Shown here one piece after another: positions 55,965 to 60,495 of a stretch of DNA of 64,000 bases. The stretch's first letter is position 1. The number at the start of each line of letters is the position of its first letter. This stretch comes from Phycisphaerae bacterium (GTDB taxonomy: Bacteria > Planctomycetota > Phycisphaerae > Phycisphaerales > Phycisphaeraceae). The translations under genes were made by a program, and so were the position numbers. The notes beneath the pieces are model-generated. The model ran no database searches. It saw nothing but the letters and a program-made list of their open reading frames with translations, and was not told the DNA's origin. The stretch spans positions 372,001 through 436,000 of the forward strand of contig JAUHZU010000001.1 of assembly GCA_030425705.1 (NCBI GenBank). Reading direction: 5' to 3'.

Positions 55965-57473
55965 TTAGCCGAGCAGACGCAGTGCGTTCTGGGGCTGGCT
56001 GTTGGCGATCGAGAGCACGTTCGTCGCCGCGGCCTGAAGCACCTGCGAGCGGGTGAGCTCGGCGGTTTCCTTGGCGAAGTCCGTGTCACGGATGGTGGAC
56101 TCGGCCGCGGAGATGTTTTCCAGGGCCACGTTCAGCGAGTTCACCGTCGAACCGACCACGTTCTTCTGGAACGCGCCGAGCCGGCCGCGCTGGATCGAGA
56201 CGCCCTTGATCGCCGAGCTGACGACTTCCTGGGCCTTGGTGAGGTCGCCGTCGATGACGTTCAGCGCGCCGCCGCCGCCGAGGTCGGCCAGGTTGTAGGC
56301 CGTGCCTTCGAGGGTCTCCTTGCCGAGCGAACGGCTGGAGACGTCCTGGATGCCGAGCTGGACCTGGTTGTTCAGGTTGACCTCGGCCCCGAGGTTGAAC
56401 TTTGCGCCGCCGCCGGTGATCGTACCCGCGGTGCTGGCACCCAGCGCCTGGGCACCGGTGGCGTTGAGGGTCACGTCGACCGAGAGGGTCTCGCTGTTGA
56501 TGGACAGGGACGTCCCCTTGCCCAGGCCCTGCACGCCATTAATCGTGCCGGCGATGTTCTGGCCTTCGTCACGGATCGCGGTGGTGATCGCCGTGAAGGC
56601 GGTGCCCGCGGCGGAGTTCAGGTCGGCTTCGTTGCCCGCCGAGGCGAGTTTGACGCCGCCGGTCTGGCCGCCGGCGTTGGTGACATTGAAGGAGACGAAC
56701 TCGTCCGAGCCGAAGCCGGTGGACTTCAGCTCGATGTAGTTGCCCGAGGCGACGGCCGAGACGCCGGTCACTTCGGTGAACGAGTTGATCTGGGTCGCGA
56801 TGCTCGCCAGGGTGGCCCCCGAGCCGAAGGAGAACTGCTTGGCACCCTCGGCACCGGCCAGCTCGAAGGAGAACGACGAGGTGGCGGCGGTCAGGTCCAG
56901 GGCCGCGGCGCCGACGCTGAGGAACAGCGAGCCGTGCTGGGCGGACTGGGTCACCAGGGTCTGGATGGCGACGTTGGCGTCGCCGAGCTTGGCGTTGTTG
57001 ACCTGCAGGTCGGTAACGTTCGCGCCCTGGCCGGTGATCTGGAAATCGAAGCTGCCGTTGAGCAGCTTGCTGCCCTGGAAGCTCGTGGTCGAGGCGATCC
57101 GGTCGATCGTCTGCAGGATGTTGTCGATCTGGAGCTGGTTCGCTTCCTTCTCTTCGGTCGAGAGGCCGGCGTCGTTGGCGGACTGGCCGACGAGCGACTG
57201 GACCTCGACGAGCAGGGCGTTGACCTCCTGCAGGCCGCCCTCGGCGACGTTGACGAACTGGTCGGCACGCTCGGCGTTGCCGATCGCAGCGCTGATCGCG
57301 GCCTTCTCGCCACGCAGCACCTCGCTCGCGATCAGGCCCGCCGGGTCATCCGCACCGCGGTTGATCCGCAGACCCGTCGACAGCCGCTGGAGCGACTGCG
57401 AGAGCTGCTGGTTCTGCTGGCCCACGATCCGCTGGGCAACCAGAGAGTTGATGTTGTTGTTGATCCGACTCAT
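55965..57473 (-). CDS. Flagellin (second copy)
   Basis: A 502-aa flagellin. N-terminus MSRINNNINSLVAQRIVGQQ and SLQRLSTGLRINRGADDPAG, C-terminus GRLGAFQKNVVGSTVNSLNV and ALENISAAESTIRDTDFAKE, ending QNALRLLG. GGAGG before ATG 57473 is a strong ribosome binding site; the longer frame upstream is not coding. It shares most of its D0/D1 sequence with the first flagellin and differs in the central domain (for example ALDLTAATSSFSFELAGAEG), as expected for a two-subunit filament. A sigma-28-like promoter candidate lies 140 bases upstream. The downstream hairpin at 55906 ends the unit. Confidence 0.95.
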   Translation of the reverse strand: MSRINNNINSLVAQRIVGQQNQQLSQSLQRLSTGLRINRGADDPAGLIASEVLRGEKAAISAAIGNAERADQFVNVAEGGLQEVNALLVEVQSLVGQSANDAGLSTEEKEANQLQIDNILQTIDRIASTTSFQGSKLLNGSFDFQITGQGANVTDLQVNNAKLGDANVAIQTLVTQSAQHGSLFLSVGAAALDLTAATSSFSFELAGAEGAKQFSFGSGATLASIATQINSFTEVTGVSAVASGNYIELKSTGFGSDEFVSFNVTNAGGQTGGVKLASAGNEADLNSAAGTAFTAITTAIRDEGQNIAGTINGVQGLGKGTSLSINSETLSVDVTLNATGAQALGASTAGTITGGGAKFNLGAEVNLNNQVQLGIQDVSSRSLGKETLEGTAYNLADLGGGGALNVIDGDLTKAQEVVSSAIKGVSIQRGRLGAFQKNVVGSTVNSLNVALENISAAESTIRDTDFAKETAELTRSQVLQAAATNVLSIANSQPQNALRLLG

Positions 57474-57800
57474 CTTTCTAACCTCCGTTGTGGCCGTCAT
57501 CGAGATCGGCCGAACTCGTTGAACCCCGGAGCACCATCCCCTGCACCGTGGACTAGGAAGTGGCCGGCCACGCCGGTCGCTTACCCCGTGGCACGACCAC
57601 GCGGTATTCAGAGGATCGACCACCACGCAAGTCCTTTTGACCCCAGCGGCCGGAATTCCGCTCCCGGCGACCGATCCGCCCCGTGAAACCCGCACAGCCC
57701 GCACAGACCGTCTCGCCCGGCCTGCGCAGGCGACAGGGCACGCCCGATCGGCGCACGTCTGTAACGGTTAGGGGGTTTCGTTCGGCCGCAGCACCGCCGC
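57474..57800. other. Intergenic region upstream of second flagellin
   Basis: About 327 bases without a gene, between the response regulator gene's end and the flagellin's start, both on the minus strand. It contains the sigma-28-like promoter candidate at 57613-57639 and otherwise GC-rich sequence in which I see nothing else. Confidence 0.5.
57613..57639 (-). promoter_or_regulatory. Sigma-28-like promoter candidate for second flagellin
   Basis: On the minus strand CAAA, 15 bases, then GTCGATCC, a fair match to the flagellar pattern TAAA-N15-GCCGATAA (8 of 12 positions). It lies 140 bases before the ATG. Flagellar context supports it; the match is incomplete. Confidence 0.45.
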
Positions 57801-58322
57801 TCAGCCCGCGTCGGGACGCCGGCCCTGCTCGAGCATCCGCTCCAGGTCCCGGATGTACGCGTCCTTGTCGTCGCCCGACTGGCGGAGCTTGCGCGTCCGC
57901 AGCAGCGACTTCACCCGCGTCAGCAGCTCCAGCTTGTTCACCGGCTTGCTCAGGAACTCGTCCGTGCCCGCCTCGACGCCGCGCTCGATATCGCCCAGTT
58001 CATTGAGCGCGGTCACCATCATGATCGCGATGTCCCGCGTCGCCGTGCCGTCCTTCAGCTTCCGGCAGACCTCGAAGCCCGACATCCGCGGCATCATGAC
58101 GTCCAGCAGCACCAGGTCCGGCTTGGGCGTCGCCGGGTCCTCGATCATCGCGAGGGCCTCGGCCCCGTCCGAGGCGGTCAAGACCTCCACGGGCATCGAC
58201 TCCAGGTACGCCTGGAGCAGCTCGACGTTCTGGGCGTTGTCATCGACGACCAGGATCACCGAGCCGGTCGGGTCGAACTCGGTACCGGTCGGGGCAGAGC
58301 CGGCTTGGGTTTCACGCGACAT
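57801..58322 (-). CDS. Single-domain response regulator (CheY-like)
   Basis: A 173-aa receiver protein. After a 20-residue variable start comes ILVVDDNAQNVELLQAYLES with the acidic pair, DLVLLDVMMPRMSGFEVCRK with the phospho-acceptor Asp, MMVTALNELGD with the switch Thr, and DEFLSKPVNKLELLTRV with the invariant Lys-Pro. No output domain is present; the last 25 residues are a helical tail (DKDAYIRDLERMLEQ). It receives phosphate from a histidine kinase not in the window. Its position next to the flagellin genes suggests a role in motility or chemotaxis control, but the same fold serves many pathways. Confidence 0.92.
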   Translation of the reverse strand: MSRETQAGSAPTGTEFDPTGSVILVVDDNAQNVELLQAYLESMPVEVLTASDGAEALAMIEDPATPKPDLVLLDVMMPRMSGFEVCRKLKDGTATRDIAIMMVTALNELGDIERGVEAGTDEFLSKPVNKLELLTRVKSLLRTRKLRQSGDDKDAYIRDLERMLEQGRRPDAG

Positions 58323-59167: not shown

Positions 59168-60094
59168 ATGGGTCGCGTGATCGAGCCAAGTACTAAGCCC
59201 GCGCTACGTCTGGATTCGAAGCTCTACCACAAAGCTCTTCGGCGTTGGGGGCAGGGCTGTGAAGGACGGGTTGGTAAAGCACCAGAACAATTTTTGGACT
59301 GGTTGGTAGGCCACAAGATCGATCCGGCATTGATCTCAATGTTCTCAGAAGCCATCCCGCTCAAACCAATGGAACGGGACGGTGATTATCTGGATCGTCC
59401 GGAGGGGATCATCATGTTCAATGATGATTATCCGGAGTTCGTCGAATCAGGTTTCTTGATCATTGGTGCTGCATGGTCTTGTGGTGATTTTCTCGTGCTG
59501 GACCTCTGGCGGAGCGGTGGCATCGGGGTCATAAGCCATGAACGACTGGACGAGCCGTTACGCGACGAGTTCTGGCCTGTCGATAAATCAATCGGTCGCT
59601 GCGCGCATCGGTTAGCCGGGACCTGGTGGCGAACGCTGGTAAACAACACGAAAAACTCAGTCGCGTCACTGTTCAAGCAGAAGGCCGGGCCCGTTACCTT
59701 TACCAAAGGTCAAACTCACCAGTTCAAAGCGGGGTATCCGATCTGCGGCTTTTCTGTCCCCGACGGCTATCACGTTCACACCTCCGGCCACGATGATGGG
59801 GTGTGGGTTAAGTTCGGCGAGATCGACAACGCTGTTGATGTGGCGCTGTACGCATTGGAACACAAGCGAGTGATGGCGGCTCGACAAGATGACGGTGGAT
59901 ATGTCCCGCTCCAAGGCGCGGAGGGCTGGCTCATCCACCGCGAGTCCGAAGGGAAGTACTTTGTGGTGTTCCTACTTGAAGACTATGCCGCAGTGGTACA
60001 CGGTGGGTTCTCATGGAGCGACAAGGACCTTGCCGAGTTTTGTCGGCGGGTTGAATTGCAAGGATCAGCGCCGACTGCGGCATCATTGCATTGA
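59168..60094 (+). CDS. Unrecognised 308-aa protein in a low-GC patch
   Basis: A 308-aa soluble protein. The middle region YPEFVESGFLIIGAAWSCGD then FLVLDLWRSGGIGVISH recalls the core of SMI1/KNR4 (SUKH) proteins, which often act as immunity factors, though the similarity is partial. Other strips are FSVPDGYHVHTSGHDDGVWV and GYVPLQGAEGWLIHRESEGK. The ATG at 59168 is preferred over a TTG at 59156. Its codons use more A/T than nearly all neighbours (TTG, GAT, GGT), a sign of recent acquisition. It stands alone, followed by the candidate RNA transcription unit. Confidence 0.65.
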   Translation: MGRVIEPSTKPALRLDSKLYHKALRRWGQGCEGRVGKAPEQFLDWLVGHKIDPALISMFSEAIPLKPMERDGDYLDRPEGIIMFNDDYPEFVESGFLIIGAAWSCGDFLVLDLWRSGGIGVISHERLDEPLRDEFWPVDKSIGRCAHRLAGTWWRTLVNNTKNSVASLFKQKAGPVTFTKGQTHQFKAGYPICGFSVPDGYHVHTSGHDDGVWVKFGEIDNAVDVALYALEHKRVMAARQDDGGYVPLQGAEGWLIHRESEGKYFVVFLLEDYAAVVHGGFSWSDKDLAEFCRRVELQGSAPTAASLH

Positions 60095-60128: not shown

Positions 60129-60156
60129 TTGACCTTTCCGCTTTCGCGCCGATAAT
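60129..60156 (+). promoter_or_regulatory. Sigma-70-type promoter of candidate non-coding RNA
   Basis: TTGACC (60129-60134), 16 bases, then GATAAT (60151-60156). Both hexamers differ from the consensus by one base, and this is the best such promoter I found in the window. The -10 is preceded by CC, giving CCGATAA as in other intergenic copies. Start is estimated near 60163. Confidence 0.65.
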
Positions 60157-60162
60157 CACTCT

Positions 60163-60495
60163 GTCGGGAACGACGGCGGCGTGTCGAGGCGGGAGAACCC
60201 CGAACCAGGCGTCGCCGGATAACCCGGCCGACCGTCGGCCCGCTCGTTGGGGTGGGTCGATGGGCGCTGTGGTCGGCGGAGACGTCGTCGGCCGTCAATC
60301 CCCCGGCGCCCCGCTGTACGCGGGGGACGGCTGGGAAAGCTCTTTTCCGAAAGCGAGGTGGTCCAGTGTCTGACTGTTATCCGTGTAGGAACGGGGCACG
60401 TTAGCTCCACTCGACGGAGCGGACGCTAAGTCCGTTGCCCCGGAACACGAACCCTACGGCTCCTGCCCCCTCTCGGGGGTGGGAGTCTTTTTTTT
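60163..60495 (+). ncRNA. Candidate structured non-coding RNA of about 330 nt
   Basis: An apparent independent transcription unit: a near-consensus promoter at 60129-60156 and a strong terminator at 60460-60495. Between them the sequence folds into several stems: CCCCG/CGGGG near 60310, and a layered long hairpin at 60382-60449 with CGTGT/ACACG, CGGGGCA/TGCCCCG and TTAGC/GCTAA pairs around GCTCC/GGAGC. No ribosome binding site or frame is convincing. It does not show the conserved strips of RNase P RNA (GAGGAAAGTC), tmRNA or SRP RNA that I know; 6S RNA is possible on shape (long hairpin) but not demonstrated. Confidence 0.5.
60460..60495 (+). terminator. Strong intrinsic terminator
   Basis: An 11-bp stem (CTCCTGCCCCC with GGGGGTGGGAG, two G-T pairs) with loop TCTC, then TC and eight T. 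It ends the candidate RNA before dprA. Confidence 0.9.

What the first reader, a model, noticed from the sequence alone, without database searches (positions are those of the whole stretch)
60129..60495. Candidate new free-standing structured RNA
A near-consensus promoter (TTGACC-N16-GATAAT) and a strong terminator with eight T enclose about 330 nt of GC-rich, highly foldable sequence without a gene. A layered hairpin covers 60382-60449. No match to RNase P RNA, tmRNA or SRP RNA strips that I know was seen. It sits just before dprA.
Basis: partly seen in the sequence, partly recalled or inferred. Interest (0 to 1): 0.6.

Follow-up and report, generated by a model that had tools for sequence, protein, structure and literature searches.

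The report
Conserved structured RNA carrying a mini-gene
Between two ordinary genes lies a small RNA gene of its own, kept mostly as a single copy in many related bacteria, that combines a folded RNA domain with an unusually strong ribosome-binding site and a tiny reading frame of about 12 amino acids; its job is unknown.

Summary
A covariance model of the core matches 176 of 269 genomes of the order, 173 of them once. Helices P4, P5 and P6 covary beyond controls. Where the hairpin anchor is found within the ORF (46 of 73), it is always in frame 0, although its distance from the start varies; the mini-ORF is very probably translated. No downstream gene family is widely shared; tmRNA, RNase P and SRP RNA lie elsewhere in the genome. 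A similar SD plus mini-ORF, with no 5' domain in those read, occurs in Alphaproteobacteria, including Rfam's CC2171. Best reading: a ribosome-engaged small mRNA or dual-function RNA. Hiding of the SD was tested and not supported in this clade. Function is unknown, and no transcript or footprint data were seen.

The parts
60129..60156 (+). promoter, -35 TTGACC 60129-60134, -10 GATAAT 60151-60156
   Evidence: scan; TTGAC and ATAAT in all 9 loci aligned, window included
60163..60495 (+). predicted RNA, about 333 nt (start inferred as 7 nt after the -10 box)
   Evidence: inference from promoter and terminator; fold z -3.33; no transcript data
60190..60202 (+). P1 hairpin CGGG-AGAAC-CCCG
   Evidence: a hairpin of 3 or more pairs around an ARAA(C) loop occurs in 32 of 73 upstream regions against 1.8 (max 5 of 73) after mononucleotide shuffling; stems differ between loci; a few of the 32 look like chance hits
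60271..60293 (+). P4 hairpin, loop GAGACGT
   Evidence: 6 of 6 pairs with changes on both sides; 98.6% of cells paired in 73 loci on the model-fitted alignment, 80.3% in 25 loci on the unfitted one
60303..60334 (+). P5 helix CCGGC/GCUGG with an inner stem and a GACG internal loop
   Evidence: 97.4% and 93.7% of cells paired; 96.8% and 94.0% unfitted
60355..60366 (+). extended Shine-Dalgarno sequence GAGGTGGTCCAG, complementary (one G-U) to 16S 3' tail CTGGATCACCTC
   Evidence: own 16S 3' end; counting G-U it is the longest such run in the window, both strands, but counting Watson-Crick pairs only it is not; stronger in relatives
60366..60404 (+). mini-ORF, GTG start, peptide MSDCYPCRNGAR, TAG stop
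   Evidence: mini-ORF found by rule at 73 of 75 loci; frame kept in 46 of 46 with the anchor
60392..60442 (+). P6: outer stem overlapping the end and stop of the mini-ORF, inner hairpin with loop letters GACGG at 60413-60417
   Evidence: 92 double-change cells against 30.6 +/- 6.2 in shuffles, 52 loci; GACGG invariant in these 52, a set chosen to contain GACGG after the ORF
60453..60459 (+). CCTACGG element just before the terminator, seen by eye in many relatives
   Evidence: sequences; not tested statistically
60458..60495 (+). intrinsic terminator, 13-pair stem and eight T

Best explanation
An RNA gene of about 330 nt, mostly single-copy, that is both a folded RNA and a very small mRNA. Shown by comparison: a covarying domain (P4, P5), a strong SD, an ORF of 6-33 codons starting mostly with GTG, a stop codon in or next to hairpin P6. 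Inferred: the SD, which shows no sign of being selected to be hidden, loads 30S subunits very readily; the ribosome translates the mini-ORF and terminates inside P6, so that P6 and its GACGG loop are open while ribosomes are at work and closed when they are not. The RNA (and perhaps its peptide) would then act as a regulator whose state or stability follows translation. The target is unknown.
For: 176 of 269 genomes of the order, 103 of 132 genera, 173 of the 176 with one match. Covariation in P4/P5: on the unfitted alignment of 25 loci 89.5% of cells paired, 54 double-change cells against 18.8 +/- 3.2, score 0.459 against 0.189 +/- 0.020 shuffled and at most 0.166 slid; on the model-fitted alignment of 73 loci 97.0%, 178 against 42.8 +/- 4.7, 0.547 against 0.183 +/- 0.010 and at most 0.115 slid. 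P6: 0.382 against 0.218 +/- 0.012 and at most 0.120 slid. Translation: frame 0 in 46 of 46 at distances 18, 21, 24, 27, 90; stops TAG/TAA/TGA 28/25/20; starts GTG 69, ATG 2, TTG 2; motif C-[TIMSLV]-[KRQGSE]-G-[LSP]-[RH] in 34 of 73, with third-position changes such as ACG/ACC/ACT/ACA. SD: contiguous Watson-Crick run with the 16S tail of 13 nt or more in 52 of 72 loci. Pairing of the SD with the segment before it is weaker than for shuffled segments in 54 of 72.
Against: No RNA-seq, Ribo-seq or peptide data for any member were seen. That translation opens P6, and that this matters, is untested. 93 of 269 genomes of the order have no match (strict filters lose weak ones). The window's own SD is the weakest of 72 in Watson-Crick terms (6 nt; 12 with the G-U). 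P5a is not supported in the window's own genus. Single-sequence folding predicts the SD only about one third unpaired. Many of the 46 loci are related, so they are not 46 independent events. Fifteen of 69 distinct ORF loci have no GACGG within 80 nt after the ORF, the distant class members above all.
Confidence: 0.5

Rival explanations
1. The peptide is the only product: a gene for a 12-residue peptide whose mRNA is folded merely for stability.
For: Frame and C-terminal residues are kept; some members are Cys-rich (L006, L242); in one family an ABC-3 metal-transport-type permease lies upstream (24 of 71 loci; PF00950 in the one representative scanned).
Against: The peptide varies widely (MKGDKR to MSDCYPCRNGAR) while the helices stay; the domain before the ORF is conserved.
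Confidence: 0.2
2. Cis-acting leader or attenuator for the next gene (here dprA).
For: dprA follows in L001, L002, L004 and L241; leader peptides with terminators act so elsewhere (recalled).
Against: Among the 16 ORF clusters printed, the largest downstream one on the RNA's strand holds 7 of 71 loci (a larger cluster mixes overlapping opposite-strand ORFs); at L008 the downstream ORF is convergent; at L003 a sulfatase-like and at L006 a D-Tyr-tRNA-deacylase-like ORF follow (named by eye). Antiterminator pairing was not searched for.
Confidence: 0.1
3. Riboswitch-like device in which the 5' domain hides or frees the SD.
For: The segment before the SD can pair with the strand after P4 (P5a: own -6.30 against permuted -4.60 +/- 0.24 kcal/mol, 0 of 2000 permutations as low; relatedness not controlled), and single-sequence folds often pair it with the SD.
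Against: Pairing of that segment with the SD is weaker than shuffled in 54 of 72, and the local hairpin is no more stable than with a shuffled segment (mean z 0.03); the SD is nearly as open without the 5' domain (0.32 full, 0.30 truncated; full higher in 47 of 73); no downstream anti-SD in this clade (4.95 against 5.07 shuffled).
Confidence: 0.1
4. Purely non-coding RNA with an accidental ORF.
For: ORFs are very short, and codons of the conserved motif also form the P6 stem.
Against: 46 of 46 in frame through length changes, start and stop codons swap.
Confidence: 0.05
5. An unrecognised housekeeping RNA, for example a 6S RNA.
For: RF00013 finds no 6S RNA in this genome; mostly single copy.
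Against: RF00013 rings in only 5 of the 14 control genomes, which include archaea, so its silence says little; the RNA is branched and has an ORF, unlike 6S (recalled); tmRNA, RNase P and SRP RNA are elsewhere.
Confidence: 0.04

Closest known systems
Rfam RF01867 CC2171 (Caulobacter sRNA)
   Same: Same start: CGAAAGGAGGUGAUCCAGUGUCU, i.e. 16S-tail complement then a GTG-TCN mini-ORF, then a terminator.
   Different: Window scores 21.1 bits, best relatives 29-33, gathering score 75. No P1-P5 domain was seen before the SD in the alphaproteobacterial loci printed, and such loci score 23.5-37.8 bits with model R1 (29 loci). Peptides differ (MSHCHQ...). Common origin not shown.
SD plus mini-ORF RNAs of Rhodobacterales and Bradyrhizobium (no Rfam match at the RNA in the 5 such loci scanned)
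   Same: GAAA-N(0-3)-GAGGTGRTCCAGTGTC, ORF of about 14-20 codons; a terminator in those read.
   Different: No 5' domain seen; Rhodobacterales carry a downstream anti-SD more often than shuffled (6.54 against 5.19, 52 loci), and an ArfB-like gene lies downstream in 27 of the 80 loci of all types examined.
Dual-function sRNAs and attenuator RNAs with leader peptides (e.g. rnTrpL/peTrpL of Sinorhizobium; PMC7298713 start of abstract in a listing, PMC10117765 passages seen)
   Same: Short RNA with a translated tiny ORF.
   Different: rnTrpL is leaderless and linked to trpE (passage of PMC10117765); here the ORF has a strong SD and no widely shared target gene next to it.
tmRNA (RF00023)
   Same: Structured RNA with a short reading frame.
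   Different: This genome has its tmRNA elsewhere; here there is an SD and start codon and no Rfam match.

Membership tests
RF01867 CC2171 | score at or above gathering (75 bits) | tested here: not met
   21.1 bits in the window; 0 of 51 genomes of the family over the cut-off, best 32.8
RF01867 CC2171 | extended SD followed by GTG-TCN start | tested here: met
   alignment; loci over gathering read
RF01867 CC2171 | pairing of the ORF start with GACAAUGG before the terminator | not tested
   only the forced alignment; no count made
tmRNA RF00023 | Rfam match at the locus | tested here: not met
   none; tmRNA on another contig, 154.4 bits
RNase P RNA RF00010 | Rfam match at the locus | tested here: not met
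   none; found elsewhere, 241.6 bits
Bacterial small SRP RNA RF00169 | Rfam match at the locus | tested here: not met
   none; found elsewhere, 51.2 bits
6S RNA RF00013 | Rfam match at the locus | tested here: not met
   none; the model rings in 5 of 14 controls only
6S RNA RF00013 | binds RNA polymerase holoenzyme, templates pRNA | not testable with these tools
   needs biochemistry
cis-regulatory leader | conserved downstream gene in the same direction | tested here: not met
   no downstream same-strand cluster above 7 of 71 loci among those printed; convergent neighbour at L008
dual-function RNA or small mRNA | translated ORF | tested here: inconclusive
   strong comparative support, no footprint or peptide data
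dual-function RNA or small mRNA | the RNA acts in trans | not testable with these tools
   needs deletion and target search

The most novel reading that the evidence does not exclude
A widespread but undescribed kind of bacterial RNA: a free-standing transcript that offers the 16S rRNA 3' tail its complement, followed by a throw-away mini-ORF, so that it reports or adjusts the supply of free 30S subunits. It would occur in at least two phyla, with a large folded domain here and, in other clades (Rhodobacterales and 2 of 4 distant loci of the window's phylum), with an internal copy of the 16S tail that competes for the SD; in Rhodobacterales it often sits upstream of the ribosome-rescue gene arfB.
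Probability: 0.15. Interest if true: 0.85.

Novelty: new variant of a known kind. Interest (0 to 1): 0.68.

Why it matters
An RNA kept in about two thirds of the genomes of an order, nearly always once, and without an Rfam match, is likely to do something basic. Its design (strong SD, ORF of about 12 codons, stop inside a hairpin) makes a direct, testable link between ribosome supply and an RNA, and the same start module in Alphaproteobacteria suggests that RNAs filed as non-coding, such as CC2171, may be small mRNAs.

Tried and rejected
Known families: the whole Rfam at gathering score on the window and on 14 related loci (two tRNAs only); with lax thresholds on 621 bases only CC2171 at E 0.025, suhB, a hepatitis C element and Xist, the last three taken as chance.

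SD switch: pairing of the upstream segment with the SD looked attractive in single folds but is weaker than shuffled, and removing the 5' domain changes little. A downstream anti-SD was seen by eye in L252 and L250, but in the window's clade it is no better than shuffled. P5a is supported over 73 loci (relatedness not controlled) but weakly over the first 25 (341 of 558 cross comparisons won).

Attenuator of dprA: set aside for lack of a widely shared downstream gene. Amino-acid leader peptide: no repeated codon was seen by eye. Metal link: the permease neighbour is limited to one family.

Caveats on counts: model R1 contains the SD, and 29 alphaproteobacterial or Gemmatimonadota loci score 23.5-37.8 bits with it, so matches under about 40 bits do not prove the 5' domain. 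The matches listed (150 rows by my count, listing cut off) are all 50.5 bits or more and come from 148 genomes. Of the 16 class genomes outside the order, 12 score under 40 bits; 12 of the 16 were fetched and counted (129 of 145 cells paired) and a 13th, L243, only read. The exact string matched 14 of 397 genomes; among its 15 matches L032 (a 58%-complete genome) is set aside as likely Bradyrhizobium contamination, L029 and L033 as chance matches, and L022 because its 5' part is missing; the pattern read backwards matched one listed genome. The window's own SD is remarkable only if G-U counts: with Watson-Crick pairs alone another place in the window has the longest run, 10 nt.

Rows dropped: L226 and L235 gave no ORF under the rule (73 of 75 kept; L221 and L239 are one locus, counted twice). 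27 of 73 ORFs had no anchor under the pattern. For P6, of 73 ORF loci 4 duplicates or near-duplicates and 15 without GACGG within 80 nt were left out, leaving 54; L023 and L227 were dropped before alignment, leaving 52. In one search four loci were not placed (71 used). In one search, 117 of the 120 stretches were used. The P6 pairs were drawn by eye from one sequence.

Literature: searches for CC2171 with Caulobacter (none), Phycisphaerae with noncoding RNA (one, unrelated by title), the SD-start string (five, unrelated by title), Planctomycetes structured RNA (five, among them PMC2864571, seen as a listing only), ArfB with Rhodobacter and sRNA (none); by title or abstract none listed describes this RNA, but most subscription papers are not held. 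Schrader et al. 2014 (PMC4117421, passages seen) say that two previously predicted Caulobacter ncRNAs are in fact translated; whether CC2171 is one of them was not seen. PMC5082802 and PMC11005374 were searched for terms, passages seen; nothing on this RNA.

Full report
What is there. By itself neither consensus site clearly exceeds what shuffles give (promoter 1 against 0.5 +/- 0.8, terminators 3 against 2.1 +/- 1.5), but the strand folds well (z -3.33) and no Rfam family matches at gathering score.

Relatives. Nucleotide search in the family gave 10 of 51 genomes, the own one included. Their alignment showed a conserved core and, within it, GAGGTGRTCCAGTGTC. The 3' end of the genome's own 16S rRNA reads CTGGATCACCTCCTTTCT; the core is its complement. 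In the window the run is 12 nt with one G-U pair; counting G-U it is the longest in both strands of the 64 kb, counting Watson-Crick pairs only it is not. In relatives it is stronger: 13 or more contiguous Watson-Crick pairs in 52 of 72 loci, the window being the weakest with 6. The exact core string is found in 14 of 397 genomes of the class (some set aside, see Tried and rejected) and a variant string in 23 of 321 of the order.

A covariance model of the stretch from before P4 to the start codon (R1, built from 25 loci) matches 176 of 269 genomes of the order, 103 of 132 genera; three genomes have two matches, the rest one. In the class 98 of 235 match, 16 of them outside the order. In the phylum 50 of 379 match; seven lie outside the class, and of these three of one family score above 40 bits (74.0, 62.1, 59.3). 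Those three carry the same peptide ending (MTQCDCTKGLRR, MTQDCTGGLRR, MKHDCTGGLRR). Because R1 includes the SD, loci that seem to have only the SD reach 23.5-37.8 bits; weak matches must be read with that in mind.

Structure. On the plain sequence alignment of 25 loci, P4, P5 and the inner P5 stem are paired in 89.5% of cells, with 54 double-change cells against 18.8 +/- 3.2 in shuffles and a covariation score of 0.459 against 0.189 +/- 0.020; sliding the partners gives at most 0.166. On the alignment of 73 loci fitted to the model the figures are 97.0%, 178 against 42.8 +/- 4.7, 0.547 against 0.183 +/- 0.010 and at most 0.115 slid. The shuffles do not control for relatedness, and the fitted alignment leans towards the structure. 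P6, on a sequence alignment of 52 loci, is paired in 85.7% of cells, score 0.382 against 0.218 +/- 0.012 and at most 0.120 slid; GACGG in its loop is invariant, in a set selected for GACGG, while 15 of 69 ORF loci have none within 80 nt. A hairpin P1 with an ARAA(C) loop is present in 32 of 73 upstream regions against 1.8 after mononucleotide shuffling. An outer helix P5a is supported over 73 loci but not in the window's own genus.

Reading frame. After the SD comes a start codon and an ORF of 6-33 codons, most often 12 (25 of 73). Of 75 loci 73 gave an ORF by rule. Start codons are GTG 69, ATG 2, TTG 2; stops TAG 28, TAA 25, TGA 20 (one locus counted twice). In the 46 ORFs that contain the P6 anchor string it lies in frame 0 each time, at distances of 18 (10), 21 (8), 24 (21), 27 (6) and 90 (1) nt. 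Many loci are related, so 46 is not 46 independent events, but several different length changes all keep the frame. In 34 of 73 the peptide ends in the motif C-x-x-G-[LSP]-[RH]; its Thr codons are ACG 13, ACC 4, ACT 3, ACA 1. The window's peptide is MSDCYPCRNGAR.

Surroundings. In the window's family an uncharacterised protein of about 160 residues (no Pfam match) lies upstream in 6 loci and dprA downstream in 4. In another family an ABC-3 permease and a small protein lie upstream in 24 and 23 of 71 loci. Among the clusters printed, no downstream same-strand family is shared by more than 7 of 71, and at L008 the downstream ORF is convergent. I take the RNA to be a gene of its own. tmRNA, RNase P RNA and SRP RNA are elsewhere in the genome; 6S was not found, but that model rings in only 5 of 14 control genomes.

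Outside the phylum. A scan of named genomes with GAAAN{0,3}GAGGTGRTCCAGTGTC stopped at 120 stretches; of the 80 whose titles were listed nearly all are by title Alphaproteobacteria, some are named only Proteobacteria or Pseudomonadota, and one is a Gemmatimonadota genome. Those printed have a short leader, the SD, a mini-ORF and a terminator-like end. Six of 17 such loci scanned reach the gathering score of RF01867 CC2171; the 5 Rhodobacterales and Bradyrhizobium loci among them do not. The window scores 21.1 bits against it, so it is not a CC2171 member by Rfam's standard; whether the shared start is common descent or convergence on the 16S tail is open. In 27 of the 80 loci an ArfB-like gene lies downstream.

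How it may work. Shown by comparison: structure, SD, frame. Tested and not supported in this clade: hiding of the SD by the upstream segment, by the 5' domain or by a downstream anti-SD. Against a simply open SD stands the folding prediction of about one third unpaired. What remains most likely to me is an RNA that keeps its SD available, loads ribosomes, and has its stop codon inside P6, so that translation keeps P6 open and the state of P6 is read by something else; this last step is inference.

Verdict. A real, widely kept RNA gene, new to Rfam and not found in the papers searched, of unknown function, that is both structured and, very probably, translated.

Noticed in passing
L036, L041, L042, L044 and 23 others among L035-L114: In Rhodobacterales the SD plus mini-ORF RNA (MSRVILERGVGT...) lies upstream of an ArfB-like ribosome-rescue gene in 27 of 80 loci of all types (RF-1 domain PF00472 in the L062 protein), with a downstream anti-SD more often than shuffled.
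   Followed up: partly
L047, L048, L069, L107, L110: In Bosea and Methylobacterium the ORF after the RNA looks like RNase R (recalled from its sequence; the fragment scanned had no Pfam match).
   Followed up: no
L252 and L250 (other classes of the phylum): The RNA carries downstream an exact complement of part of its own SD, GATCACCTCCT (L252) and AGGATCACC (L250), i.e. a copy of the 16S tail.
   Followed up: partly
L054 5050-5070: A Gemmatimonadota genome has the same SD and a mini-ORF MSVETPGQPARAKRLPRGGMG.
   Followed up: no
L032 (G207): A Bradyrhizobium-type copy with a tRNA upstream in a 58%-complete genome of the class; probably contamination.
   Followed up: partly
window 59171-60091 (+): A 307-residue ORF without Pfam match sits between the conserved 160-residue neighbour gene and the RNA; in L004, L005 and L241 that neighbour is much closer to the RNA (in L003 as far), so it may be an insertion.
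   Followed up: partly
window 60279-60285, 60326-60330, 60413-60417: GACG or GACGG recurs in three loops of the RNA (P4, P5, P6); perhaps repeated binding sites.
   Followed up: no
window 57801-58322 (-) and 55965-57704 (-): A response-regulator protein (PF00072) and a flagellin-like ORF (by eye) lie upstream.
   Followed up: no
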